This document shows positions 11,544 through 23,525 of a stretch of 64,000 bases of DNA, piece after piece. The stretch is from Amycolatopsis australiensis. Lineage in GTDB: Bacteria; Actinomycetota; Actinomycetes; Mycobacteriales; Pseudonocardiaceae. The translations under genes and the position numbers were made by a program. Every line of letters starts with the position of its first letter. The stretch's first letter is position 1. The DNA is taken from positions 1,488,001 to 1,552,000 of the forward strand of contig NZ_FPJG01000006.1 in NCBI RefSeq assembly GCF_900119165.1, given 5' to 3'. Below the pieces are notes generated by a model. The model searched no databases. It had not been told where the DNA came from and saw nothing but the letters and a program-made list of their open reading frames with translations.

Positions 11544-12170
11544 ATGGGTGTCGCTGCTGACGAACGCCGGGCGCTGAGCGCGCTTCTCGACGACCTCGGG
11601 CCGGATGCGCCCACGTTGTGCGAAGGCTGGACCACCCGGGACCTGGCCGCGCACCTCGTCGTGCGGGAACACCGGCTCGATGCCGCGCCCGGGATTCTCG
11701 TGCCCGCCCTCGCCCGCTACACCCAGAAGGTCCAGGACCGCTACGCCGCCAAGCCGTGGGCCGGCCTGGTCGAGCAGGTCCGGAACGGGCCGTCGAAGTT
11801 CTGGCCCACCGCGCTCGGCCCGCTCGACGAGCTGACCAACACCGCCGAGTTCCTCGTCCACCACGAGGACGTCCGGCGCGCACAACCCGGCTGGCAGCCG
11901 CGGCCCGCCGATGCCACGCGGGACGCCGCCGCCTGGAATTCGGCTCGGCAGGCCGCCAAGCTCAACCTCCGGAAGTCTCCCGTCGGTGTCACCCTGCGCA
12001 CCGGGGATGGCCGCGAAGCCGCCGTCAAGACCGGGCCCGACCCCGTCACCGTCGTCGGCGAGCCCGTCGACCTGCTGCTCTTCGTGTTCGGCCGCGACGC
12101 CGTCGACCTCCGCTTCGAAGGCGACGCGGCCGCCGTCACGAAACTCCGGGCCGTGAACCGCGGACTCTGA
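11544..12170 (+). CDS. DinB-like/maleylpyruvate-isomerase-type protein (TIGR03085-like)
   Basis: 208 aa. The opening (ERRALSALLDDLGPDAPTLC followed by EGWTTRDLAAHLVVREHRLD) and the motif EFLVHHEDVRRAQPGW are typical of the actinobacterial mycothiol-dependent DinB-like superfamily, whose members bind a metal through three His and use mycothiol as cofactor. The exact reaction is unknown. The ATG at 11544 follows a TAACGT box by seven bases, which decides against the longer in-frame start at 11487. Its 3' end overlaps the convergent membrane-protein gene by 35 bp. Confidence 0.8.
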   Translation: MGVAADERRALSALLDDLGPDAPTLCEGWTTRDLAAHLVVREHRLDAAPGILVPALARYTQKVQDRYAAKPWAGLVEQVRNGPSKFWPTALGPLDELTNTAEFLVHHEDVRRAQPGWQPRPADATRDAAAWNSARQAAKLNLRKSPVGVTLRTGDGREAAVKTGPDPVTVVGEPVDLLLFVFGRDAVDLRFEGDAAAVTKLRAVNRGL

Positions 12171-12828
12171 GCGAAACCCACCGCCCCACCGGCAGCGCCA
12201 CCACGATCGCCGCCAGCGCCAGGTGCACGGCCATGAACGCCACCGCCGCCGGCACGCTCGGCGGGCCGCCGAGGAACACGATCATGTGCGACGCCCACTT
12301 CAGCTCGGTCGGCTTCGAACCCGCCGCCCAGACGTCGTTCAGCGCCCAGAACGTCAGGTCGTTCACGCCCGAGATCACCACGAGGATCGACGCGATCCCG
12401 ACCTTGAGCACGTTCGCCGTCCGGCCGCCGCCGAGGCGGTAGGCCAGCAGCCCGAACAGCACGATGAACGTCGTCACGAACAGCTCGAACTGGTAGACCG
12501 GCTGGAAGTCGCCATCGGCGGAGCGCGCGAACGCCTGCACCCGCATCACCAGCTCGGTGTCCAAATAGGACATGTAGCCGAACACCGCGAACACGATCAG
12601 CGCCGGCCCGAACCGGCCGCGCGGGAACAGCGAGACCGTCAGCACCGCGAAGACGAACGGGCACAGCTTGAACGCCCAGTCGCCGATGTTGTCCAGCGTC
12701 TGGTCCGGCGGCAGCACCACCATGATCAGCAGCGTGGTGACCACCGCCGGAACGGCGGCGACCAGCCACAGCCACTGCCGCCGCCGGTACAGGGCGGCGA
12801 CCAGGCCGGGCGATTCCAAGAGCGTCAC
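12136..12828 (-). CDS. Polytopic membrane protein, last gene of the surface-polymer operon
   Basis: 230 aa with six or seven predicted membrane segments (for example about 15-35, FVFAVLTVSLF, ALIVFAVFGYMSYL, LFVTTFIVLFGLLAY, ILVVISGVNDLTFWAL, AVHLALAAIVVALPV). I do not recognise the family. The GTG start overlaps the TGA of the carbamoyltransferase gene by four bases (GTGA), so translation is coupled and its job is probably tied to the same pathway. It may serve as a membrane assembly or transport partner for the carbamoylated product. Upstream in-frame extension would run inside the carbamoyltransferase gene. Confidence 0.75.
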   Translation of the reverse strand: MTLLESPGLVAALYRRRQWLWLVAAVPAVVTTLLIMVVLPPDQTLDNIGDWAFKLCPFVFAVLTVSLFPRGRFGPALIVFAVFGYMSYLDTELVMRVQAFARSADGDFQPVYQFELFVTTFIVLFGLLAYRLGGGRTANVLKVGIASILVVISGVNDLTFWALNDVWAAGSKPTELKWASHMIVFLGGPPSVPAAVAFMAVHLALAAIVVALPVGRWVSLRVRGSRPGVS

Positions 12829-14624
12829 AGTTCCTTCTCCACCCAGAACGGTCCGAGGGCCAGCGCGTCGACGTCGGTCTTCAGGTAGCACGCGATCGCG
12901 TCGGCCGGGCTGGCCACGATCGGCTCGTTGTTGTCGTTGAACGAGGTGTTGACGACCATCGGCACGCCCGTCAGCTTCTCGAACTCGCTGATCATCCGGT
13001 AGTACAGCGGGTTGTCCGCCCGGCTGACCGTCTGCACCCGCGCGGTGCCGTCGACGTGGGTGATCGCCGGGACCTCGGCCCGCTTGTCGGGCAGCACGTC
13101 GAACACCAGCAGCATCACCGGCGACGGGTAGTCGCTGACGAAGTACTCGCCCGCCCGCTCCACCAGGCACGACGGCGCGAACGGCCGGAACGCCTCGCGG
13201 TGCTTGACCTTCTCGTTCATCCGCGTCTTCGACTCCGGGTCGCGCGGGTCCGCGATCAGCGACCGGTTGCCCAGCGCTCGCGGCCCGCACTCCATCCGGC
13301 CCTGCACCCAGCCGACGATCCGCCCTTCGGCCACCTTCGCCGCGGTGTGCGCCGCGATGTCGTCGACGCGCGTGTACTCGACGCCGGCGTCCTGCAACGC
13401 CAGCTCCATCTCGGCCTCGGTGTAGTCGGGGCCGGTGTAGGTGTAGCCGTCGCGCGGGCGCGGCTTGCCGTACTTGGCGACCGACACGTCCAGTGCCGCG
13501 CCGAGCGCGCAGCCGTCGTCGGCCGCCGCGGGCTGGGCGAAGAAGTCCTCGAACGGCGTTTCCAGCAGGATCCGGCCGTTCATCACGCTGTTCAGCGCGA
13601 CACCGCCGGCGACGCACAGCCGCTTCGAGCCGGTCTCGCGCTGCAGCCACCGCGCCAGGTGCAGGCCCGCTTCTTCGAGCGTCACCTGCAGCGCGTAGGC
13701 GATGTCGCGGTAGTGCTGCGGCACGGGGTTCTCCGCGGTGACGCGGGTTTTGGGCCGCGCCGGGCCGAACGTGTCGGTGAACTTCTTCGACATCACGTGC
13801 TTGCCGGTGCGGTGGTGGCCGAACCAGGACAGATCCAGCTCGAACCCGCCGTCGTCGTCGAGGTGGATGAGCTGCTTGAACGCGTCGACGTAGGTGTCCT
13901 CGCCGAACGGCGCCAGGCCCATGATCTTGCCTTCGTCGCGGGTCGGGTAGAAGCCGAGGTAGCCGGTGACGCCGGCGTACATCGCGCCGAGCGAGTGCGG
14001 GAACTTGATCCGCCGCAGGTCGACGATCCGGTTGCCGCGGCCGTGGGCGAGGTAGGTCGCCGTGCCGTCGCTGCCGATGCCGTCGAAGGTGAGCACGGCC
14101 GACTCGTCCCACGGCGAGATGAAGTAGCCGCTGGCCGCGTGCGCGCGGTGGTGGTCGACGAGGTGGGTCCGGAACTTCGTCGGCCCGGTCCAGCCGACGG
14201 CTTCCTTGACGTCCTTTTCGAGCGTGAACGACCGCTTGATGTGCGCGAGGACCGCGCCGCCGACGTGGTAGTCGTCGTGGCCCTTCCCGCCGCCGGTCAG
14301 GAAGGTGTCGACCATGCCCGCCGACTTGCCGCCTTCGTCGCCGTTGGCGTTGCGGAAGACCTCCAGCGTCCCGGGGAAGTAGCGCGCGAACACCTTGGCC
14401 GCGTGGATGCCTTCCTTCCAGCGCTGCCAGTAGTAGGCGACGTGGTCCACGTCGCCGAGGGTGATCCCGCCGCGTTCCAGGCAGAATTTGATGGCCTCGG
14501 CGGGAAAGCCGCCGTCGTGCTTCACGCGCGTGAAGCGTTCCTCCTCGGCGAAGGCGACGATCTCGCCGTCGCGCACGAGTGCCGCGGCCGAGTCGTGGAC
14601 CCGGCTGATGCCCAGTACATACAT
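12825..14624 (-). CDS. NodU/CmcH/TobZ-type O-carbamoyltransferase
   Basis: 599 aa. The N-terminal YrdC-like/Kae1-like carbamoyltransferase domain opens with GISRVHDSAAALVRDG and has the metal motif HHRAHAASGYF; the C-terminal domain has MVVNTSFNDNNEPIV. Such enzymes use carbamoyl phosphate and ATP to form carbamoyl-adenylate and transfer the carbamoyl group to a hydroxyl of a sugar, antibiotic or Nod factor. In this operon the acceptor is probably a glycosylated product made by the GT2 and ATP-grasp enzymes. It is separated from the flippase gene by 16 bp and coupled by GTGA overlap to the downstream membrane protein. Confidence 0.92.
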   Translation of the reverse strand: MYVLGISRVHDSAAALVRDGEIVAFAEEERFTRVKHDGGFPAEAIKFCLERGGITLGDVDHVAYYWQRWKEGIHAAKVFARYFPGTLEVFRNANGDEGGKSAGMVDTFLTGGGKGHDDYHVGGAVLAHIKRSFTLEKDVKEAVGWTGPTKFRTHLVDHHRAHAASGYFISPWDESAVLTFDGIGSDGTATYLAHGRGNRIVDLRRIKFPHSLGAMYAGVTGYLGFYPTRDEGKIMGLAPFGEDTYVDAFKQLIHLDDDGGFELDLSWFGHHRTGKHVMSKKFTDTFGPARPKTRVTAENPVPQHYRDIAYALQVTLEEAGLHLARWLQRETGSKRLCVAGGVALNSVMNGRILLETPFEDFFAQPAAADDGCALGAALDVSVAKYGKPRPRDGYTYTGPDYTEAEMELALQDAGVEYTRVDDIAAHTAAKVAEGRIVGWVQGRMECGPRALGNRSLIADPRDPESKTRMNEKVKHREAFRPFAPSCLVERAGEYFVSDYPSPVMLLVFDVLPDKRAEVPAITHVDGTARVQTVSRADNPLYYRMISEFEKLTGVPMVVNTSFNDNNEPIVASPADAIACYLKTDVDALALGPFWVEKEL

Positions 14625-14640
14625 GATTTCTCCCAGTGGT

Positions 14641-15888
14641 TCAGTGCCGGCGGACCAGGCGCCGCAGGACGGCCGCCTTCACCGCGAGGGCGAGGACGAG
14701 CGCGGCGAACCCGCCCACCGGCCCGAGGACGGGGACGAGCAGTGCCGCGGCGACGGCGGTGGCGGCCAGCGAGACGACGGCGGTGCCGGACGTCAGCGTC
14801 AGCACCTTGCTGTTGGTGTTTTCGATGAGGAAGCCCGCGTACAGGCCGGTCGCGTACAACGCCGTCTCGACGAGCACGAGCAAGCCGAGGACGACGTAGG
14901 CGTCTTCGGCGGTGAGCAGGGCGCGGGTCCCGGGGATGGCGAGACCCGCGCCGAGCAGGACGGCCACGGCGATCCCGGCGCGTTCGACCAGCCGCAGCAA
15001 CGCGACCGCCCGGGTCCGCCCGGCCGCCGCGCCCGTGCCGCGCATCCGCCGTGACGCGGCCGGCTGGTGCAGCTTGAGCTGGTAGTACAGCAGCGAGCAG
15101 AACGCGCTGGACACGAGCAGCGCCAGGTAGAACGGGCCGCTGTCGGTGGTCCGGCCGGACAGCGCCAGCACGGCGAACACGACCGACGTCGAGACGACGT
15201 CGAGCAGTTCGGTCAGGCCGAGCAGGACGGTGCTGCGGCCGAACGCGGGCAGCAGCCGGTGACCTGGCAGCCCGCCGCCCCGCAGCCAGGGGCGCGGCAG
15301 CAGGGCCACCGAGGCGCCGAGGATGACGAGGATCCCGCCGAGCAGCAGCGCCAGGTGCGTCTCGGGGGACCAGCGCACCGCCCACGTCACGCAGGTCACG
15401 ACGCCGACCACGATCGAGCCCGCGGTGAACGCCAGTGCGTCCAAACTGGACTTCGCACGCAGCCGGTGCAGGCCGGACACGGTCATCAGCAGCCCGCCGG
15501 AGATCGACCACGCCGCCGCCGTCAGGTACAGCGCCGCGTCCGAGCGCGGCGCCACCACCAGCGCGACGACCGTCGCGGCCAGCACCGCCAGCACCGGCAC
15601 CGCGGCGAGCCGGACGGCGAGCGCCGCGACGGCGTCCCGGGTCCGGTGCAGCCGCGGCAGGCTCTTCAACGCGGACTTCTCCGCCGCGGCCGGGACGAAG
15701 TTCAGCCAGGTCATCAGGCCGAGCGCGTTCGCGAACCGCCCGTAGTCGCGGGCACCCCACGCGGTGATCAGGACCAGCCCCATCAGCTGGACCGACAGCC
15801 GGAACACGCCCCGGCCGGCGAGCAGCCGCAGCACCACCGCCGGCCGCGGCGGGGCCACGGCCGGCGCGGCGGTGGACGGCGCGGTCAC
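14641..15888 (-). CDS. Polysaccharide flippase-like membrane protein (MOP/Wzx-like)
   Basis: 415 aa with about 12 hydrophobic segments and few charged loops. The opening RLLAGRGVFRLSVQLMGLVLITAWGARDYGRFANALGLMTWL resembles oligosaccharide flippases of the MOP superfamily (the RDYG.FA.A pattern). It would move a lipid-linked or otherwise hydrophobic product across the membrane. The GTG start overlaps the ATP-grasp stop codon by four bases (GTGA). The family call rests on topology and the N-terminal pattern only. Confidence 0.68.
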   Translation of the reverse strand: MTAPSTAAPAVAPPRPAVVLRLLAGRGVFRLSVQLMGLVLITAWGARDYGRFANALGLMTWLNFVPAAAEKSALKSLPRLHRTRDAVAALAVRLAAVPVLAVLAATVVALVVAPRSDAALYLTAAAWSISGGLLMTVSGLHRLRAKSSLDALAFTAGSIVVGVVTCVTWAVRWSPETHLALLLGGILVILGASVALLPRPWLRGGGLPGHRLLPAFGRSTVLLGLTELLDVVSTSVVFAVLALSGRTTDSGPFYLALLVSSAFCSLLYYQLKLHQPAASRRMRGTGAAAGRTRAVALLRLVERAGIAVAVLLGAGLAIPGTRALLTAEDAYVVLGLLVLVETALYATGLYAGFLIENTNSKVLTLTSGTAVVSLAATAVAAALLVPVLGPVGGFAALVLALAVKAAVLRRLVRRH

Positions 15889-17126
15889 GGCAGGGGTACC
15901 GCCATGTCCTGGTCGTGGAGCAGGAACTTCAGCGTGCCGCGGACGGCGTTCTCCGCCGCGAGCAGCTCCGGCGCCGAGCCGGCGGTGAGCACGACGTACC
16001 CCAGCTTGTGCCCGGCCTGCTCGTACGGCCGGACGAACGAGCCCTCGTCGGCGAACAGGTGCAGCCCGACCAGCCCCGGCATCGCGCGCACGTCGTCCAC
16101 CCCGTCCACACGCGACAGGTGGCCGCCGCGGTCGGACGCCAGGATGTGCACCAGCGTCGGCTTCGGCTCGTGCAGGTCCAGCCGCACCTCGTCGCCGGTG
16201 GCGGCCGCGATGCCGGCGGCGATCAGGTCGGCGCCGTGGCAGTGCGCGATCGCCTCCGCGAGCCCGTTGCCGCCCATCCGGGCGCCCATCTCGATGAGGT
16301 ACAGCCGCCCGTCGCGGCCGAGGACGGCGTCCAGGGTGAGCGGGCCGGTGCGGTAACCCAGCTCGGTGCAGATCCGGTCGAGGGCCTCGATCAGGTTCAG
16401 CTCGACGTCCGCGGGCAGCTCGGCGGGCAGTAGGTGCGACGACGTCACGAAGAATGGCGGCGGCGTGAGCGCGCGTTCGGTGACGGCGTGGAAGACGATC
16501 CGGCCGCCGACGACGAGCGCCTCGATGGTGAAGTGCGAGCCGTCGAGGTGCTCCTCCACGACCAGCCGGCCGGACGGCGAGAACGCGAGCGACTCGGTGA
16601 ACGCCGTGGTCAGCCTGCCCGGGCCCGGGCAGGACACGACACCGCGGCTGCCGGAGGAGTCGACCGGTTTGACCAGCGCCGGAAACCGCAGCTGCTGCGC
16701 CGCGTGCACCAGCTCGGGCCCGGGACGGCCGTCGACACTGCGGTAGCTCGGCAGTCCCAGGTGGTCGCACAACGCGCGGAACACGGACTTGTCCGTCGAC
16801 GCGCGGACCGCGTACTCGGGCAGCGGATCCGGCATGCCCCAGTGGCGGGTGAGCCACGCCAGTGCGGGCAGGCCGACGTCGCTCGCCGGGCACAGCACGC
16901 CGGCGAGATCACGGCGGCCGTCCAGCGCCGCCGCGATCTGCTCCGGCGCACGCACGCTGACCTGCAGGAACTCGTCGGCGTACGCCACGGCCGGCGCGGT
17001 GGGCCGGACGTCGACGCAGAGCGTGCGGAAGCCCAGCTCCCGCGCCCGCTCGTAGGTGCTGACCGAACCGTCCGCGCCCCCCAGGATCACCAGGGTTCTC
17101 GCGGGGTCCTTCTCCGAACTCGTCAC
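15885..17126 (-). CDS. ATP-grasp ligase
   Basis: 413 aa. The N-terminal Rossmann-like pre-ATP-grasp domain is followed by LCPASDVGLPAL and ASTDKSVFRALCDHLGLPSY. The ATP-grasp lobes are shown by FPALVKPVDSSGSRGV (nucleotide lysine) and LVVEEHLDGSHFTIEALV, and the metal motif by LYLIEMGARMGGNGLAEAI. The enzyme should activate a carboxylate as acyl phosphate and ligate it to an amine, so it may attach an amino acid or amino sugar in this pathway. Substrates are unknown. The GTG at 17126 overlaps the glycosyltransferase stop (GTGA). Confidence 0.88.
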   Translation of the reverse strand: MTSSEKDPARTLVILGGADGSVSTYERARELGFRTLCVDVRPTAPAVAYADEFLQVSVRAPEQIAAALDGRRDLAGVLCPASDVGLPALAWLTRHWGMPDPLPEYAVRASTDKSVFRALCDHLGLPSYRSVDGRPGPELVHAAQQLRFPALVKPVDSSGSRGVVSCPGPGRLTTAFTESLAFSPSGRLVVEEHLDGSHFTIEALVVGGRIVFHAVTERALTPPPFFVTSSHLLPAELPADVELNLIEALDRICTELGYRTGPLTLDAVLGRDGRLYLIEMGARMGGNGLAEAIAHCHGADLIAAGIAAATGDEVRLDLHEPKPTLVHILASDRGGHLSRVDGVDDVRAMPGLVGLHLFADEGSFVRPYEQAGHKLGYVVLTAGSAPELLAAENAVRGTLKFLLHDQDMAVPLP

Positions 17127-18133
17127 GCTGAAACGCCTTTCCCCAGTTGCACATCGATGAGCCGGGGACCCACGGGGTCCGCCGGGGTGAAGAGCCGGTC
17201 CTCGGCGTCGACGACGACGTTCGCCTCCCGGACGTAGAACTGCCGCGGCCGCGGCTGGCCTGCGCCGACCACGACGAGGTAGCGCACGGTCAGCGACGCC
17301 ACCAGCAGCAGCACGGCGAGCAGCGCGAACAGCAGCGTGGCCGTGACACCCGCGCCGAGCAGGCCGAACGCCGCCGCGCCACCCGCGAGCACCGCGATCC
17401 CCGCGGCGAACAGGGCCGTCGCGGACGCCGCCGTCGTTAACCGCCGGGTGAACCCGACGAACAGCTCGATGGCGTGCGAAGCCAGGAATCCGAAGCCCAC
17501 TTTGGACTCGCCGCGCTCGCGAGCCCGGTGCGCCACCTGGACACAGGCGTACCGGCTGGTCAGCCGGGGGACCGTGGCCAGGAAGTACGGCGTGCCGAGC
17601 CGCAGGTCGACGATCTTGCGGGCCAGTTCCGCGCGGACCAGCCGGAACGCCGTGGCGCCCGGCGGGATCTCGATGCGCAGCACGCGGCGGCCGAGGAAGT
17701 GGAAGGCCGCGGTGCCCCAGCGCCGCAGCCGCGGGTCCTGGCGGTTGGTCCGTACGCCGAACACGGCGTCGTTGCCCTGCTCGGCCACCGCGACCAGCTT
17801 CTCCGCCTCGGCCGCGGGGAACTGCTGGTCGGCGTCGACGTGCAGGATCCACGGCTTCGACGCGTAGCGGTAACCGGCCGAGAAAGCGGCCTCGAAACCG
17901 AAGTTCCGGGTGAAGGACAAGTACCGCACGCGCGGGTCGGTGGCCGCGAGCGCCCGGATCTTGTCGAGTGTTCCGTCGATGCTCCCGTCATCGACGTAAA
18001 ACAGCTCCAGTGAATAGTGGCCTAGTTCGTTGGTTATTTCCCGATAGGACGGTTCGACGTTCTCGACTTCGTTGAAGCACGGAATGACTACGCTGAGTCC
18101 ACTGTGCGCCGGCCCGGGAAACGGGCTGGTCAT
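17123..18133 (-). CDS. GT2 glycosyltransferase with C-terminal membrane anchor (DPM1/GtrB-like)
   Basis: 336 aa. GT-A fold: VVIPCFNEVENVEPSY, FYVDDGSIDGTLDKI, NFGFEAAFSAGYRYA and the DXD-type HVDADQQFP. Two C-terminal helices (about residues 230-285) resemble polyprenyl-phosphate glycosyltransferases such as DPM1, GtrB and ArnC, which load a sugar onto a membrane polyprenyl phosphate. It is the first gene of a five-gene coupled operon ending at 12136. It is divergent from the transferase array at 18406, with 272 bp of shared regulatory DNA between. Confidence 0.88.
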   Translation of the reverse strand: MTSPFPGPAHSGLSVVIPCFNEVENVEPSYREITNELGHYSLELFYVDDGSIDGTLDKIRALAATDPRVRYLSFTRNFGFEAAFSAGYRYASKPWILHVDADQQFPAAEAEKLVAVAEQGNDAVFGVRTNRQDPRLRRWGTAAFHFLGRRVLRIEIPPGATAFRLVRAELARKIVDLRLGTPYFLATVPRLTSRYACVQVAHRARERGESKVGFGFLASHAIELFVGFTRRLTTAASATALFAAGIAVLAGGAAAFGLLGAGVTATLLFALLAVLLLVASLTVRYLVVVGAGQPRPRQFYVREANVVVDAEDRLFTPADPVGPRLIDVQLGKGVSA

Positions 18134-18405
18134 CTGCCGCGCCGGAGGTGCGACAGCGATCTCGTGTTCGGTCGGTCACCGACAGTGCGAATACTGCTCA
18201 TGAATCCCCCAGACGGATCCGGTAAGGCTGCTTGCCGTTCTGCGGCGTGGCGGAGTTATAAGCAGACGGATCGTGGTCGGGGGACGGAATTCCTACGAAT
18301 TCCTCCGTTCAGACCCAGACCAAAGTATTAACCCATCCGGCATTCGGGGTGACCTGCCGGTGAACTTCTTCCCCTCGGCCGGTCCATGACGCAGACTCCC
18401 CGGCC
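18134..18405. promoter_or_regulatory. Divergent promoter region with an 18-bp inverted repeat
   Basis: This gene-free segment separates two divergent coupled operons. It is locally A/T-richer than its surroundings (AAAGTATTAA near 18318). It contains the perfect inverted repeat GGAATTC-CTAC-GAATTCC at 18286-18303, a good candidate for a shared operator. No regulator gene lies in either operon, so the binding protein must be encoded elsewhere. Confidence 0.5.
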
Positions 18406-19164
18406 ATGTGGAAACTGGGGGCGGGGGTTGTCTGGCGCGCCGCGTACGCCCGGGCGGTGCGCTCGGCGTTCGCGACGGTGCCGTTCTACCGCGAGCGCTG
18501 GGCGCTCGACGGCCGGGAAGACCCGGTGCTGGTGCCCGGGCGCACCGGGACGAACGGCGGCGCGGTACCCCTCGCGGAAGCGGTGCACAAGTCGGTCGAC
18601 CTCGTCCCGCTCGCCGGCGGTGCGTCGCGCGGTGAACCCGCGCGTGGACTCGGCCGGGTGCTGCGGATGGCGCGTGAGCCCGGGCCCGGCAGCCTGGTCG
18701 TCCTGCTCGGGCCGGACGGCCTGCGCCCGCCGGCCGACCTGCCGAAGGGCGTGCGCGGGTGCGTCGCCGACCCGGACGCGCCGAGCGCGCCGGTGCTGCG
18801 CGAGGTGACGGTCAGGCTGGAGCGCGGCCACCGCGTACTGGCCGTCGGCGACGACAAGGCGATCACGACGTTCACCGGGGACCACCGCGTCGAAGCCGTG
18901 CCGCACCGCGAACTCGACTCGCTGGACGGCGGCCCGTACGGCGTCCTGCACGACCCGGTGCTGGGATACCTCGGCGCGCTGGGCGGCTGCGGGCGCTGGC
19001 ACCTCGACTGGCCGCACGTCTACGCGCGGCCGACGGCCGGCGGGCTCGCGTTCACGCTGCTGCGGCAGGCGTCCCCGCGGTTCGTGGACGTCATCCCGGC
19101 CGGCGGGGTGCACGGCGAGATCGCGCCCTGCCCGCGGCACGGCACCCCGGTCGTCCTGGCATGA
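18406..19164 (+). CDS. Small PaaK-like (adenylate-forming-enzyme-related) protein
   Basis: 252 aa. The start (AAYARAVRSAFATVPFYRERW) resembles the N-terminus of phenylacetate-CoA ligase/LuxE-type enzymes. The end (HDPVLGYLGALGGCGRWHLD, then TLLRQASPRFVDVIP and CPRHGTPVVLA) resembles late parts of the same group. At 252 aa against about 400 or more, and with no P-loop-like AMP-binding motif visible, the catalytic core looks condensed or lost. It may be a carrier or scaffold rather than a ligase. Its TGA overlaps the ATG of the first transferase (ATGA), so it leads a coupled operon. The family call is tentative. Confidence 0.6.
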   Translation: MWKLGAGVVWRAAYARAVRSAFATVPFYRERWALDGREDPVLVPGRTGTNGGAVPLAEAVHKSVDLVPLAGGASRGEPARGLGRVLRMAREPGPGSLVVLLGPDGLRPPADLPKGVRGCVADPDAPSAPVLREVTVRLERGHRVLAVGDDKAITTFTGDHRVEAVPHRELDSLDGGPYGVLHDPVLGYLGALGGCGRWHLDWPHVYARPTAGGLAFTLLRQASPRFVDVIPAGGVHGEIAPCPRHGTPVVLA

Positions 19165-20192
19165 GGTTCGCGTTCCACGATCCGCGCGTCGACCCGGCAC
19201 CCGCGGGCTGGACGGCGTTCGCGCGGGCCGCGCGGCTGCACCCGGTGTGGGACTACGAGCTGATGGGCCTGGAAGCCTGGGGTGCCCGCAACCCGCAGCT
19301 GCTGGCCGTCGCCGTCGAAGGCGGCGAGATCGTCGCCGCGATGTCCGTGCTGGTCTGCCACCCGCGGCTGGCTCCCCGGTTCGCGCCCCGGCCGGGAAAG
19401 CGGTCGCTGCGGCCGTTCTGGGCCGAGGTCTGCCAGCCGTGGCTGAGCGGCTATCCGGGCATCGTGTTCGCCCCGGGCTTCCGGGACGGGCCCGCACTGA
19501 CGCGGGAGTTCGAGCGGACGCTCGGCCGCCGCCTCGGCGTGGGCCTGCTCGGCGTGGTCTACCGGGCGATCGGCGCGGACCTCGCGACCGGGCTCGAGGG
19601 CCGCGGCCGGCTCGTCAAGCGCGTGGACCCGGTGGCCGTGCTGGAGAACCGGTTCGAGTCCGAAGAGGACTGGCTGGCGACGCTGCCGAGCTCGCGGCGC
19701 TCCGGCCTGCGCCGCCGCCGTCGCCGGCTCGCCGAGGACCCGACGCTGGTGGTGCGCGGCGGACCGGGCCGCGCCGACCTCGACGGCGCCGAGCTGGCCC
19801 GGCTGATCCGGGCGCACCGCGAGCGCTACGGAAAGCTCAAGCTGGACACGCGCACGCCGCCGTCGGCCGGGTTCCTGGACCGGTTCGTCCGGCGGCCGGA
19901 CGTGCACACGCTCACCTATGCCGACACCGACGGCAGGCTGCTCGCGGTGAACACGCTGCTCGACCACCCGGACAGTCCCAGCCTGCAGCACTGGGCGGCG
20001 CTGCCGCTGAGCGAGCGTGGCCGGTCGGGACTGTACTTCGATTCCTACGTCCGGGCGGTGCGGTTCCTCGCGCGGCGCGGGGCGAAGGAGCTGACCGCGG
20101 GCCGCGGCATGATCGAGCTCAAGCAGGAACTGGGGTTCCGCGCGCGGCCGGTGTACACGGCCGCGGTGCCGAGGCCGGTGCTGGGCCGATGA
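19161..20192 (+). CDS. FemAB/CelD-like double-GNAT transferase, copy 1
   Basis: 343 aa. First of four tandem paralogues with the plan: HDPRVDPAPAGW opening, PVWDYELMGLEAW, GLLGVVYRAIG, then a basic helix [48 protein letters not shown], and an LKQELGFRARPVYTAAVPRP end. This resembles two-GNAT-fold proteins of the FemAB/CelD-BcsL type, which transfer aminoacyl or acyl groups. Cytoplasmic, no signal or membrane segment. Start and stop overlap both neighbours by four bases (ATGA). Donor and acceptor are unknown. Confidence 0.72.
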   Translation: MRFAFHDPRVDPAPAGWTAFARAARLHPVWDYELMGLEAWGARNPQLLAVAVEGGEIVAAMSVLVCHPRLAPRFAPRPGKRSLRPFWAEVCQPWLSGYPGIVFAPGFRDGPALTREFERTLGRRLGVGLLGVVYRAIGADLATGLEGRGRLVKRVDPVAVLENRFESEEDWLATLPSSRRSGLRRRRRRLAEDPTLVVRGGPGRADLDGAELARLIRAHRERYGKLKLDTRTPPSAGFLDRFVRRPDVHTLTYADTDGRLLAVNTLLDHPDSPSLQHWAALPLSERGRSGLYFDSYVRAVRFLARRGAKELTAGRGMIELKQELGFRARPVYTAAVPRPVLGR

Positions 20193-21253
20193 GCGCGCCG
20201 ACGACGACCGCGGTTTCGCAAGTGGACGTGCACGACCCCCGCGTCGACCCGCCCCCGGAGGGCTGGGCCGCGTTCCGCGCCCGGTGCCTGCCGCCGGTGT
20301 GGGACTACGAACTGCTGCGCCGCGAGGCGTGGCTCGCGAAGAACCCGCCGGTGCTCGCCGTCGTCCGGCGGGGCTCGCGGATCGCCGGCGCGCTGTCGGT
20401 GATGGTGTGCCGGAGCTGGCGGGCGGTGGACTTCGGGCCGGTCTCCCGGGGCCGGGTGCGACCGCGCTGGGCGGAGGTCTACCTGCCGCTGCTGAGCGGC
20501 TATCCGGCGTGCGTGTTCGACGAGGACTTCGCGGACCGCCGGGCGGCCGTGCGGGAGTTCGAACGCGCCCTGCGGGCGTACGTCGGGCCCGGCCTGCTCG
20601 GCGTGATCTACCGGGCGATGAACCCGGAGCTGGTGCCCGCGCTGGACGGCCGTGGCCGCCTGAGCCGCGAGATCGATCCGGCCGCCGTGCTGGTCAACCG
20701 CTACTCCACTGTGGACGAATGGACCGCCGGACTGGCCCCAGAGGTCCGGCAGTACCTGGATCCCGGCGTCGCCACCGAAGCGGCGTTCGGCCGGACCGAC
20801 CTCGACCCGCACGAACTGGCCGTGCTGCTCAACGCCCACCGGGCACGTCAGGACGAGCGGGCGTGGGCGAGCGGGCAGCGCTCGCGGATCGGCGGGCTGC
20901 ACATGGACACGCGCAGCCCGGTCGCGCCCGCGTACCTCGACGCGCTCGTCCGGCGGCCGGACGTGCTGACCCGCACCTACCGCGACGAAACCGGACGGCT
21001 GCTGGCCTTCAACACGATGCTCGACGAGGAACGCGGCTGCGCGGTCCACCACTGGGCGGCGCGGCCGAGCGCGGACGGCGGCCGGAAGGGTCTCTATGTC
21101 GACTGTTACGCCCGGTGCGTGGCCCACATGATCGCCGAAGGACGCCCGGAGCTGACGGCGGGCCGCGCGATGCTGCCGGAGAAGACCGCGCTGGGCTTCG
21201 TGACCCGGAGCCTGTTCTCGGTGGCCGTGCCCCGGCCGGTGCTGGGCCGATGA
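20189..21253 (+). CDS. FemAB/CelD-like double-GNAT transferase, copy 2 (divergent)
   Basis: 354 aa paralogue of its neighbours, with a ten-residue longer N-terminus. It shares PPVWDYELLRREAW, GLLGVIYRAMN, LDGRGRLSREIDPAAVLVNR, MDTRSP, RRPDVLTRTYRDETGRLLAFNT and the AVPRPVLGR end. The basic helix seen in copies 1, 3 and 4 is replaced by APEVRQYLDPGVATEAAFGR, so this copy may have lost substrate binding or changed its role. ATGA overlaps on both sides keep translation in step with the array. Confidence 0.72.
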   Translation: MSAPTTTAVSQVDVHDPRVDPPPEGWAAFRARCLPPVWDYELLRREAWLAKNPPVLAVVRRGSRIAGALSVMVCRSWRAVDFGPVSRGRVRPRWAEVYLPLLSGYPACVFDEDFADRRAAVREFERALRAYVGPGLLGVIYRAMNPELVPALDGRGRLSREIDPAAVLVNRYSTVDEWTAGLAPEVRQYLDPGVATEAAFGRTDLDPHELAVLLNAHRARQDERAWASGQRSRIGGLHMDTRSPVAPAYLDALVRRPDVLTRTYRDETGRLLAFNTMLDEERGCAVHHWAARPSADGGRKGLYVDCYARCVAHMIAEGRPELTAGRAMLPEKTALGFVTRSLFSVAVPRPVLGR

Positions 21254-22293
21254 CCTGGACCGTCCGGGTGCTCGACCCGCGCACCGATCCCGAGCCGGCC
21301 GGCTGGGCCGCGTTCCTCGCCGCCCAGCAGGCCCCGCTGACCTGGGACTACAGCCTGCTGTGCACGGAGTCGCGGCACTCCCGCAGCCCGTACCTGCTGA
21401 CCGTGGTCACCGACGGCGGCGAACTGGTCGCCGCCGTGCTCGCGATGGTCTGCCGGCCCGGCGGCTCGCCCGAGCCGGGCGCCGTGGACGGCGTCGCGCG
21501 GTGGACGCCGCGGTGGCTGGAGGTCCAGCACGCCTGGCTTTCGTGCTACCCGGCGTGGCTGTTCGCCGAAGCGCTCGACGCGGCCGCGCGCCGCGAGATC
21601 CTGCGCCGGTTCGAGCGGGCGGCGTGCCGGCGCACCGGGCCCGGCTGCCTCGGCGTGGTCTACCGCGCGGTCACCCCGGACACCACCGGGTTGGTTGCCG
21701 GGCGCGGCCGGCTCGTCCGGGACATCCAGCCCGCCCTGGTACTGGAAAACACCTTCACCGATCTCGACGGCTGGCTCGCGTCGCTGAGCCGGAACCGGCG
21801 CTCCAGCCTGCGCGGCCAGATCCGCAAGATCGCCGCCGACCCCGGGGTGGTCGTGCGCGAGGGGACCGCCCGCGCCGACGTCGATCCCGAGGAGCTGGCA
21901 GCGATGCTGCGTGCGCACCGCGAAGCCAAGGGGCCGGTGAAGTTCGACCAGCGCGGCCCGGTCACCACCGAGTACCTCGGCGAGCTCGTCCGCCGCCCCG
22001 ACGTCGTCACCACGACCTACCACGACGACCAGGGGCGCCTGCTGGCCTTCACGGACCTGCTCGACCACCCGGTGATGCCGTTGCACCAGCACTGGGCCGC
22101 GTTGCCGCCCGCAGCCGGGCGGCCGAAGCACCTCTATTTCGACGTCGTCGTCCGCGGGGTCCGGCACATGATCGAGCACAACCGGAAGTTCCTGTCGCTG
22201 GGCCGCGGGGTCACCGACCTCAAGGCGTCGCTCGGATTCACGCCCAGCCCGATGGTCGGCGTCGTCGTGCCGAGGCCGGTGACGCGATGGTGA
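21250..22293 (+). CDS. FemAB/CelD-like double-GNAT transferase, copy 3
   Basis: 347 aa. It has the same layout as copy 1: LDPRTDPEPAGWAAF, TWDYSLLCTES, GCLGVVYRAVT, the basic segment LSRNRRSSLRGQIRKIAADP, HREAKGPVKFDQRGP, RRPDVVTTTYHDDQGRLLAF, HQHWAALPP, LSLGRGVTDLKASLGFTPSP and VVPRPV at the end. The Arg-rich segment followed by a short helix is typical of the second GNAT domain of CelD/BioF2-type acetyltransferases. Overlaps copy 2 by ATGA and copy 4 by seven bases. Confidence 0.72.
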   Translation: MTWTVRVLDPRTDPEPAGWAAFLAAQQAPLTWDYSLLCTESRHSRSPYLLTVVTDGGELVAAVLAMVCRPGGSPEPGAVDGVARWTPRWLEVQHAWLSCYPAWLFAEALDAAARREILRRFERAACRRTGPGCLGVVYRAVTPDTTGLVAGRGRLVRDIQPALVLENTFTDLDGWLASLSRNRRSSLRGQIRKIAADPGVVVREGTARADVDPEELAAMLRAHREAKGPVKFDQRGPVTTEYLGELVRRPDVVTTTYHDDQGRLLAFTDLLDHPVMPLHQHWAALPPAAGRPKHLYFDVVVRGVRHMIEHNRKFLSLGRGVTDLKASLGFTPSPMVGVVVPRPVTRW

Positions 22294-23324
22294 TCGACGT
22301 CCTGGACCCGCGCCACGACGCGGAACCGGTGTACTGGACGGTGTTGCGCGAGCGGGCCGGGCTGCGCGCGGACTGGAGCTGGGAGGTGCTGAAGACCCAG
22401 GCCTGGGCGGCACGGACGCCGCAGCCGGTGACCGTGCTGCGGGACGGCACCGAACCGCGCGGGGTGGTCAGTGCCGCGTGGGTCACCGGCCGGACGCGGC
22501 GGCACCGGTTCGCGGGTCCGGGCCGGGGCTGGTTCGGCGGCCTCGACGTCCGGGGCCCCGGCGCGAGCGCGCAGCCTGGCTGGTGGTTCGCGGACGCGGG
22601 CGACGACGGCGGCGTCACCCAGGTGCTCGAGACGTACGTCCCGGCCATGCGCGCCGAGCTCGGGCCCGGGTTCCGCGCGATGCTGCTGCGGCAGGTCGGC
22701 GAGCCGGGCGTGCCCGCGGTCAGCGGCCGGTTCCGGCTGGTGCGGCGGACCGAGGACATCGCGGTGCTCGACGTCTCGGCGTTCGGGTCCCGCGACGACT
22801 GGATGAACTCGCTGGCCCGGAAGCGGAAGCAGAACCTGCGCAAGATCTTCCGGACCTTCGACGCCGACCCGTCGATCGCCGTCCGGTGCGTGCCGGGCAA
22901 GGAGGCCGACCCGGTCGCCGTCGCCGAGGTGCTGCGGCACAACGAGCGCAAGCACCACGACGTGCCGATCGTGCCGTTGCCCCACTTCGTCGGCTACCTG
23001 ACGGTGCTGCTGCGGCAGCCGGACGTCCGGGTGATCGAGTACCACGACACGCGCACCGGGCGGCTGGTCGCGGTCGCGACCCTGCTCGACCACCCGCGGC
23101 TGCCGATCGCCCGGCACTGGGGAGCGCTCGGGCCGCGGGACGGCGGCCGGCCGAACCTGTACTTCCACTTCTACGGCGAGGCGGTGCGCTGGGCGATCGC
23201 GAACGGACGCGAGTCGGTGGTGTTCGGCAAGAAGATGACGGAGATGAAGGCGACGCTCGGCGCGCGGCTCGTCCCGCAGTACGCGGCGGCGGTCCCGGTG
23301 CTAGCTTCGCGGCGTCCCACCTAG
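22287..23324 (+). CDS. FemAB/CelD-like double-GNAT transferase, copy 4
   Basis: 345 aa, the most divergent full-length member. It keeps LDPRHDAEPVYW, WSWEVLKTQAWAARTPQP, SLARKRKQNLRKIFRTFDADP (basic helix), RQPDVRVIEYHDTRTGRLVA, HWGALGPRDGGRPNLYFHFY and KMTEMKATLGARLVPQYAAA. The ATG at 22287 overlaps copy 3 by seven bases; a GTG at 22290 would give the four-base GTGA overlap used elsewhere and is equally possible. It ends 15 bp before the tautomerase gene. Its divergence suggests a different acceptor or donor in an ordered series. Confidence 0.72.
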   Translation: MVIDVLDPRHDAEPVYWTVLRERAGLRADWSWEVLKTQAWAARTPQPVTVLRDGTEPRGVVSAAWVTGRTRRHRFAGPGRGWFGGLDVRGPGASAQPGWWFADAGDDGGVTQVLETYVPAMRAELGPGFRAMLLRQVGEPGVPAVSGRFRLVRRTEDIAVLDVSAFGSRDDWMNSLARKRKQNLRKIFRTFDADPSIAVRCVPGKEADPVAVAEVLRHNERKHHDVPIVPLPHFVGYLTVLLRQPDVRVIEYHDTRTGRLVAVATLLDHPRLPIARHWGALGPRDGGRPNLYFHFYGEAVRWAIANGRESVVFGKKMTEMKATLGARLVPQYAAAVPVLASRRPT

Positions 23325-23339: not shown

Positions 23340-23525
23340 ATGCCGATGATCAGCGTTGCCATGTTCCCCGGCCGCACGCCCGCCCAGAAGAGCGCACTGG
23401 TCCGCGAGCTGACCGACGCGTTCGTCCGCACCTGCGGCGGCAAGCCGGAGGGCGTCCAGGTGACGCTCGTCGAGGTCGGCGCCGACCACTGGGCCACCGG
23501 CGGGGTCCTGCACTCCGAGCGCTGA
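23340..23525 (+). CDS. 4-oxalocrotonate tautomerase-like protein
   Basis: 61 aa, the usual 4-OT size. The sequence begins Met-Pro, so Pro becomes the N-terminal catalytic base after Met removal. The core (ISVAMFPGRTPAQKSALVRE) and QVTLVEVGADHWATGG fit the tautomerase superfamily, which catalyses keto-enol tautomerisation. A GCAGGAG ribosome binding site precedes the ATG. It lies 15 bp after the transferase array and could be the last gene of that transcript. A long hairpin follows at once. Confidence 0.85.
   Translation: MPMISVAMFPGRTPAQKSALVRELTDAFVRTCGGKPEGVQVTLVEVGADHWATGGVLHSER

What the first reader, a model, noticed from the sequence alone, without database searches (positions are those of the whole stretch)
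12136..23324. Undescribed divergent surface-polymer or conjugate system
Two back-to-back, fully overlapping operons combine functions rarely seen together: polyprenyl-type GT2, ATP-grasp ligase, flippase-like protein, O-carbamoyltransferase and a seven-helix protein on one side; a shrunken PaaK-like protein and four tandem FemAB/CelD-like transferases on the other. Most junctions are GTGA or ATGA four-base overlaps. Inference: a lipid-linked glycan is built, carbamoylated, decorated by a series of acyl or aminoacyl transfers, and exported. There is no polymerase, NRPS or PKS, so it does not match a standard capsule or antibiotic cluster.
Basis: partly seen in the sequence, partly recalled or inferred. 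Interest (0 to 1): 0.78.

Follow-up and report, generated by a model that had tools for sequence, protein, structure and literature searches.

The report
Conserved ten-gene sugar-decorating island
A soil actinomycete carries ten adjoining genes that are kept together across several related genera and probably build and export a small, heavily decorated, fat-anchored sugar for the cell surface; the papers searched do not describe this gene set.

Summary
Ten genes at 12136-23324 form two divergent operons around a 272-bp gap; 7 of 8 junctions overlap, one has a 16-bp gap. The host is an Amycolatopsis. The block is a unit: among 60 relatives the carbamoyltransferase ortholog and the FemAB-like proteins occur in the same 15 genomes; 14 fetched relatives share the order, and 28 of 34 named loci carry the carbamoyltransferase form, in six named genera, within differing neighbourhoods. 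A second form, mainly Actinokineospora, lacks the carbamoyltransferase, adds a sugar epimerase-like gene, and keeps the other gene kinds. Glycosyltransferase and ATP-grasp are fused in two lineages. The PaaK-like protein has the PaaK N-domain fold but lacks lid and P-loop. Best reading: a polyprenyl-phosphate-linked sugar is made, aminoacylated or acylated, carbamoylated and flipped out as a non-polymeric envelope decoration. Substrates, acceptor and flipping are inferred. New variant of a known kind.

The parts
12136..12828 (-). Membrane protein with six long helices and several short ones, no known family; relatives in both cluster forms
12825..14624 (-). O-carbamoyltransferase (Carbam_trans_N and _C), relative of GdmN, the novobiocin enzyme and TobZ; most conserved gene of the block
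14641..15888 (-). Multi-spanning membrane protein, probably a MOP/MATE-type flippase
   Evidence: no Pfam hit above cut-off; profile alignment to MOP proteins over 350 columns, 79% probability, MFS control 1.2%; smaller MOP sets gave 0.6 to 40%
15885..17126 (-). ATP-grasp carboxylate-amine ligase of L-amino-acid-ligase type (LAL_C2)
   Evidence: fused to GT2 in L086 and L076
17123..18133 (-). GT2 polyprenyl-phosphate sugar transferase of GtrB/ArnC/DPM type
18134..18405 (.). Divergent promoter region, 272 bp; blocks around TTATA and TTCAG conserved in the 25 sequences aligned
18406..19164 (+). Truncated PaaK-fold protein without P-loop or lid domain
19161..20192 (+). FemAB/GNAT-like transferase F1
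   Evidence: PF13480 above cut-off
20189..21253 (+). FemAB/GNAT-like transferase F2
   Evidence: about 50% identical to F1; no Pfam hit of its own
21250..22293 (+). FemAB/GNAT-like transferase F3
   Evidence: PF13480 above cut-off
22287..23324 (+). FemAB/GNAT-like transferase F4, the paralog with clear counterparts in both cluster forms
   Evidence: PF13480 below cut-off

Best explanation
A self-contained pathway for a short, lipid-linked, modified sugar of the cell envelope. (1) The GT2 enzyme loads a sugar onto polyprenyl phosphate at the inner face of the membrane. (2) The ATP-grasp ligase joins an amino acid or other carboxylate to an amine on that sugar or its donor. (3) The carbamoyltransferase adds a carbamoyl group. 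(4) Two to four FemAB/GNAT-like transferases add further aminoacyl or acyl groups, helped by a catalytically stripped PaaK-fold protein that acts as adaptor or binding partner. (5) The flippase-like protein moves the finished lipid-linked unit outward, and the multi-helix protein assists export or hands it to an acceptor. Shown: gene set, conservation, operon structure, families of GT2, ATP-grasp and carbamoyltransferase, the predicted PaaK fold and its losses, the GT2/ATP-grasp fusions. Inferred: every reaction's substrate, the order of steps, flipping, acceptor and location of the product.
For: GT2 matches ArnC, sll0501 (GtrB by recall) and dolichol-phosphate mannose synthase structures and carries DDGSxDxT and DADQQ. 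GT2 and ATP-grasp are one ORF in L086 (probably A. spheciospongiae) and in a Micromonosporaceae MAG, L076. In the second cluster form an epimerase/dehydratase-family gene lies directly upstream of GT2 (no NCBIfam model reached its cut-off, so its sugar is unknown); an auxiliary epimerase also belongs to a described lipid-linked sugar system (PMC11127046, abstract and part 1 of the Discussion read). The flippase-like profile aligns with MOP proteins over 350 columns. The block is inherited together in changing neighbourhoods, its tree largely follows genera, and dN/dS is below 1 for all ten genes in every comparison made (0.08 to 0.67, one paralog pair set aside).
Against: No GT-C transferase is recognised, so the final transfer is unexplained. 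The flippase assignment is moderate: smaller profile sets gave 0.6, 2.6, 20 and 40%, no Pfam family is reached and no PDB chain matches at E 5. The multi-helix protein has no fold match. The first-form cluster L067/L087 of A. spheciospongiae lacks the flippase gene. FemAB-like chemistry is untested and their profile finds no convincing PDB chain. The described three-component system uses a PRPP-type synthase that its authors say is unlike GtrB. Presence within the genus is patchy, 15 of 36.
Confidence: 0.55

Rival explanations
1. A specialised-metabolite pathway: a diffusible carbamoylated, aminoacylated sugar (aminoglycoside- or nucleoside-like) is built in the cytoplasm, and the membrane proteins export it.
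For: The carbamoyltransferase's closest solved relatives are antibiotic enzymes: GdmN, decarbamoylnovobiocin carbamoyltransferase and TobZ; LAL-type ATP-grasp enzymes make dipeptides (recalled); PaaK-family ligases such as ClxA, AjiA1 and NatL2 top the Foldseek list; presence within Amycolatopsis is patchy, 15 of 36 same-genus genomes including the own one.
Against: Among the ten genes there is no regulator, resistance gene, NRPS or PKS; GT2 is of the membrane polyprenyl type; the block is deeply conserved and its tree mostly follows genera.
Confidence: 0.2
2. A side-chain module for a known wall polymer such as arabinogalactan, or for proteins: a three-component glycosylation system with extra acylation, whose GT-C lies elsewhere in the genome or is the multi-helix protein.
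For: Polyprenyl-phosphate GT2, flippase and epimerase are parts of such systems (PMC11127046). Hosts are nearly all Pseudonocardiaceae, many with arabinogalactan walls (recalled).
Against: The multi-helix protein (230 aa) shows no GT-C match and its model has only a short stretch after its first long helix; patchy presence within one genus argues against a basic wall function.
Confidence: 0.17
3. A conventional Wzx/Wzy-type capsule locus whose initiating transferase and polymerase lie elsewhere.
For: A flippase-like gene and a glycosyltransferase are present.
Against: Only one glycosyltransferase, of the monophosphate type; no initiating phosphoglycosyltransferase or polymerase among the ten; no Wzx-family hit for the flippase-like protein.
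Confidence: 0.06
4. Two unrelated operons that only happen to lie back to back.
For: In the second cluster form the gene groups are rearranged.
Against: The divergent layout is kept in the 28 loci with the carbamoyltransferase, in six named genera, although the two Actinophytocola loci carry extra genes; proteins from both operons recur together in the rearranged form.
Confidence: 0.02

Closest known systems
Three-component lipid-linked glycosylation systems (GtrA/GtrB/GT-C; pentofuranose systems of Citrobacter, PMC11127046)
   Same: Polyprenyl-phosphate sugar synthase, probable MOP/MATE-type flippase, epimerase-like gene in the second form
   Different: No recognised GT-C; GT2 is GtrB-like whereas the Citrobacter synthase is PRPP-based and unlike GtrB; adds ATP-grasp ligase, carbamoyltransferase, FemAB-like transferases and a PaaK-fold protein
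ArnC/ArnT-type aminoarabinose lipid modification
   Same: GT2 matches ArnC structures; an amine-bearing sugar is plausible
   Different: No formyltransferase, aminotransferase, deformylase or ArnT-type family among the ten
NodU/TobZ/GdmN O-carbamoyltransferases
   Same: Both domains and the HHxxH region conserved
   Different: Substrate unknown; no PKS or NRPS gene among the ten
Exosortase/PEP-CTERM-associated polysaccharide loci with FemAB-like and AMP-ligase genes (recalled, not tested)
   Same: FemAB-like plus AMP-ligase genes beside glycan genes
   Different: No exosortase among the ten; the PaaK-like protein here is truncated; different phylum

Membership tests
Carbamoyltransferase (NodU/TobZ/GdmN) | Carbam_trans_N plus Carbam_trans_C over most of the protein | tested here: met
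   PF02543 204.4 bits, PF16861 238.8 bits, above cut-offs
Carbamoyltransferase (NodU/TobZ/GdmN) | Conserved metal/active-site His and Asp (roles recalled from TobZ) | tested here: met
   H10, D11, H154, H158, H159, H162, D181, D369, D370 invariant in 29 rows; region aligned to GdmN
GT2 polyprenyl-phosphate sugar synthase | PF00535 domain, DxD-type motif, C-terminal membrane anchor | tested here: met
   one strong hydropathy peak at 263-281, a second helix is read by eye only; acceptor use not tested
L-amino-acid ligase type ATP-grasp | ATP-grasp core plus LAL_C2 | tested here: met
   PF13535 45.6 and PF18603 58.7 bits, above cut-offs
PaaK-type adenylate-forming ligase | PaaK N-domain fold | tested here: met
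PaaK-type adenylate-forming ligase | P-loop [ST][SG]GT[TS]G and R[YF]xxGD motifs | tested here: not met
   0 of 26 rows for each; both present in the full-length L076 relative
PaaK-type adenylate-forming ligase | C-terminal lid domain | tested here: not met
   the whole 252-aa model aligns to residues 13-323 of PaaK1, whose chain has 423 residues in the model compared
FemAB/GNAT-like transferases | PF13480 or PF04339 match | tested here: met
   at E 0.01, PF13480 in 9 and PF04339 in 6 of 19 family members; F1 and F3 over the PF13480 cut-off, F2 and F4 not
FemX-type aminoacyl-tRNA transferases | Aminoacyl-tRNA as donor | not testable with these tools
   needs biochemistry; PDB hits of the profile only at E 0.4 to 0.95
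MOP/MATE flippase | Sequence-profile homology to MOP proteins | tested here: inconclusive
   35 flippase-like against 16 MOP proteins: 79%, 350 columns; against 10: 2.6%; nine-row profile against the 10: 40%, against its halves: 0.6 and 20%; MFS control 1.2%; no Pfam family reached
Three-component glycosylation system | GT-C transferase | tested here: inconclusive
   multi-helix protein: no reliable fold or family match, model only moderate; rest of genome not searched for GT-C
Wzx/Wzy capsule locus | Initiating phosphoglycosyltransferase and polymerase in the locus | tested here: not met
   none among the ten by Pfam

The most novel reading that the evidence does not exclude
A new class of envelope glycolipid assembly: an ATP-grasp ligase coupled to a polyprenyl-phosphate sugar synthase makes an aminoacylated lipid-linked sugar, and a line of FemAB-like transferases, organised by a PaaK fold that has lost its adenylation chemistry, adds further residues before export, with O-carbamoylation as an optional cap. 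It would be a non-ribosomal, non-NRPS way to build a short peptide-like or acyl chain on a lipid-linked sugar.
Probability: 0.27. Interest if true: 0.75.

Novelty: new variant of a known kind. Interest (0 to 1): 0.52.

Why it matters
If right, a group of actinomycetes that includes A. orientalis (an antibiotic producer, recalled) carries an unrecognised envelope decoration made by a compact gene set. It would link two enzyme classes (ATP-grasp ligases and polyprenyl-phosphate sugar synthases) in one step, and would give a role to a PaaK fold without its catalytic parts. The unit is small enough (ten genes) to delete or move in laboratory strains.

Tried and rejected
Chance adjacency: rejected by identical presence sets and order. 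Plasmid carriage: no match for the PaaK-like protein in the plasmid collection at E 1e-5; the other nine proteins were not tried there. Functional PaaK ligase: rejected as the simple reading because of missing P-loop and lid. Wzx family for the flippase: no hit with PF13440 or PF01943 in five cluster-bearing relatives (G003, G005, G006, G007, G011), and one hit in the own genome at about 4.41 Mb, far from the block. Mutual exclusion with Wzx-type genes: PF13440 in 6 of 15 cluster-bearing against 15 of 21 cluster-lacking same-genus genomes, only a trend and not corrected for kinship. Multi-helix protein fold: best Foldseek matches had E above 1 and are meaningless; a Pfam scan of 38 homologs gave only scattered hits in one to three members, best E 0.0026. 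FemAB-like profile against PDB chains: three hits, E 0.4-0.95, judged chance. Flippase profile tests: of 17 MOP and 10 MFS open frames picked by length and hydropathy, 16 and 8 were kept. Literature: searches found no paper with the searched combinations; one search found two, judged unrelated from title and abstract start; the library is open-licence only. Searches were seen as listings with abstract starts; of their papers only PMC11127046 was opened (abstract, start of the introduction, part 1 of 2 of the Discussion). The class survey scored only five candidates per genome and the family survey seven, so weak relatives may be missed. My gene caller dropped GT2 in 8 of 29 rows and the PaaK-like gene in L062, although tblastn finds them. 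The promoter alignment used the window and 24 of the 28 first-form loci. dN/dS uses dS compressed by extreme GC, so the near pairs weigh most; the F1 value against L034 (0.70) is a paralog comparison and is set aside.
Full report
What is there. The window lies in a 9.3-Mb genome. Protein hits named by their sources are largely Amycolatopsis, and in the tree the nearest row is A. eburnea. Gene starts and stops follow the frame-specific GC. Five minus-strand genes run 18133 to 12136 and five plus-strand genes run 18406 to 23324, divergent from a 272-bp gap. Six junctions are 4-base GTGA or ATGA overlaps, F3/F4 overlaps by 7 (or 4 with a GTG start), and flippase-like/carbamoyltransferase has a 16-base gap.

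Families. The carbamoyltransferase matches both Pfam domains and solved GdmN, novobiocin and TobZ enzymes; nine His and Asp residues of interest are invariant in 29 rows (roles recalled). GT2 matches PF00535 and ArnC-, sll0501- and dolichol-phosphate-mannose-synthase-type structures. The ATP-grasp protein has LAL_C2. F1 and F3 pass PF13480; F2 and F4 are recognised by homology. The flippase-like, PaaK-like and multi-helix proteins reach no Pfam family.

Unit of inheritance. Of 60 relatives including the own genome, 15 hold a carbamoyltransferase at 86% identity or more, the other listed matches being at 51% or less, and the same 15 hold F2 relatives. All 15 are among the 36 same-genus genomes; none of the 24 other genomes of the order has an F2 match at E 1e-3. 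The 14 other loci were fetched: all have both operons in the same order, seven with four FemAB-like genes and seven with three. A scan of public genomes with the PaaK-like alignment gave 34 loci. Twenty-eight carry the carbamoyltransferase form, in Amycolatopsis, Goodfellowiella, Saccharomonospora, Prauserella, Actinophytocola and Actinokineospora and one MAG named only as an actinomycete; the flippase is missing in one of the 28 (L067), FemAB-like number varies, and the two Actinophytocola loci have extra genes. A family-wide survey found the FemAB-like family in 39 of 297 genomes and 7 of 46 genera, both cluster forms counted together; a class-wide one in 2 of 394, the own genome being one (only five candidates scored per genome). 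A tree of three joined proteins groups its 29 rows mostly by genus, but A. marina with A. palatopharyngis, and A. antarctica (beside Prauserella), fall apart from the other Amycolatopsis.

A second form. Six of the 34 loci show no carbamoyltransferase within the stretch held. Four Actinokineospora loci (L069, L071, L072, L074), and L086 from a genome whose other contig has the length of the A. spheciospongiae contig of L067, hold PaaK-like plus F4-like genes, flippase-like plus multi-helix genes, and an epimerase/dehydratase followed by GT2 and ATP-grasp (L072 ends before ATP-grasp). L071, L072, L074 and L086 add a second short PaaK-like gene, a cysteine-rich protein and another FemAB-like gene; L069 has a second FemAB-like gene beside the first. 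In the loci held, the multi-helix and flippase-like relatives of this form are 28-33% and 33-38% identical to the window's. The Micromonosporaceae MAG L076 resembles this form but has a full-length PaaK; its multi-helix relative is at most a fragment at the locus end. L073 keeps a PaaK-like/FemAB pair and a fragment of F4. In L086 and L076 GT2 and ATP-grasp are one uninterrupted ORF with even third-position GC. The shared core is therefore GT2, ATP-grasp, flippase-like, multi-helix, PaaK-fold and FemAB-like proteins; carbamoylation belongs to the first form.

Flippase and multi-helix protein. A profile of 35 flippase-like proteins aligned to 16 MOP proteins with 79% probability and E 1.6e-5 over 350 columns; eight MFS proteins gave 1.2% and a 34-column match; 10 MOP proteins gave only 2.6%. 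A nine-row flippase profile gave 40% with those 10, and 0.6% and 20% with their halves. I call it probable, not shown. The multi-helix model has mean pLDDT 75.1 and no fold match.

Mechanism. I infer a polyprenyl-phosphate-linked sugar made by GT2, joined to an amino acid or other acid by the fused or adjoining ATP-grasp ligase, carbamoylated, extended by FemAB-like transferases, and moved outward. The absence of polymerase, initiating transferase and further glycosyltransferases among the ten suggests a short unit. The nearest described scheme is the three-component pathway (PMC11127046; abstract and part 1 of the Discussion read), with a polyprenyl-phosphate sugar synthase, a MATE flippase, a GT-C and an auxiliary epimerase. 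Here no GT-C is recognised, the synthase is of another type, and the amide, carbamoyl and acyl steps are extra.

Novelty. Each enzyme belongs to a known kind, except the multi-helix protein. Searches for papers combining these genes found none that describes it, within an open-licence library. I rate it a new variant of a known kind.

Noticed in passing
window 18134-18405: The divergent promoter region holds blocks around TTATA and TTCAG that are conserved in the 25 sequences aligned (window and 24 loci, several genera), at a gap length of 249-320 bp; possible shared promoter or regulator site.
   Followed up: partly
window 23340-23525: A 61-codon ORF just downstream of F4, present in the window and six loci with the same flanks; looks like a small tautomerase (by eye), not beside the block in other clades.
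   Followed up: no
L058:2079-3305 and L075:1741-2952: Actinophytocola clusters carry a second ATP-grasp gene after the multi-helix gene; L075 also has a second type of epimerase beside GT2.
   Followed up: no
L073:10001-11975: In Actinophytocola xinjiangensis a PaaK-like/FemAB pair with a fragment of F4 stands alone, about 5 kb from a gene that looks like an adenylation-domain (NRPS-like) gene by eye: a remnant or a borrowed pair.
   Followed up: partly
G658, G672, G686 (family survey): One FemAB-like copy in each of these three genomes is reported with one in-frame TGA; possible decay, frameshift or a match running past a gene end.
   Followed up: no
same-genus genomes G000-G035: PF13440 (Wzx-type) genes occur in 6 of 15 cluster-bearing and 15 of 21 cluster-lacking genomes, a weak hint that the block replaces another surface-glycan system.
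   Followed up: partly
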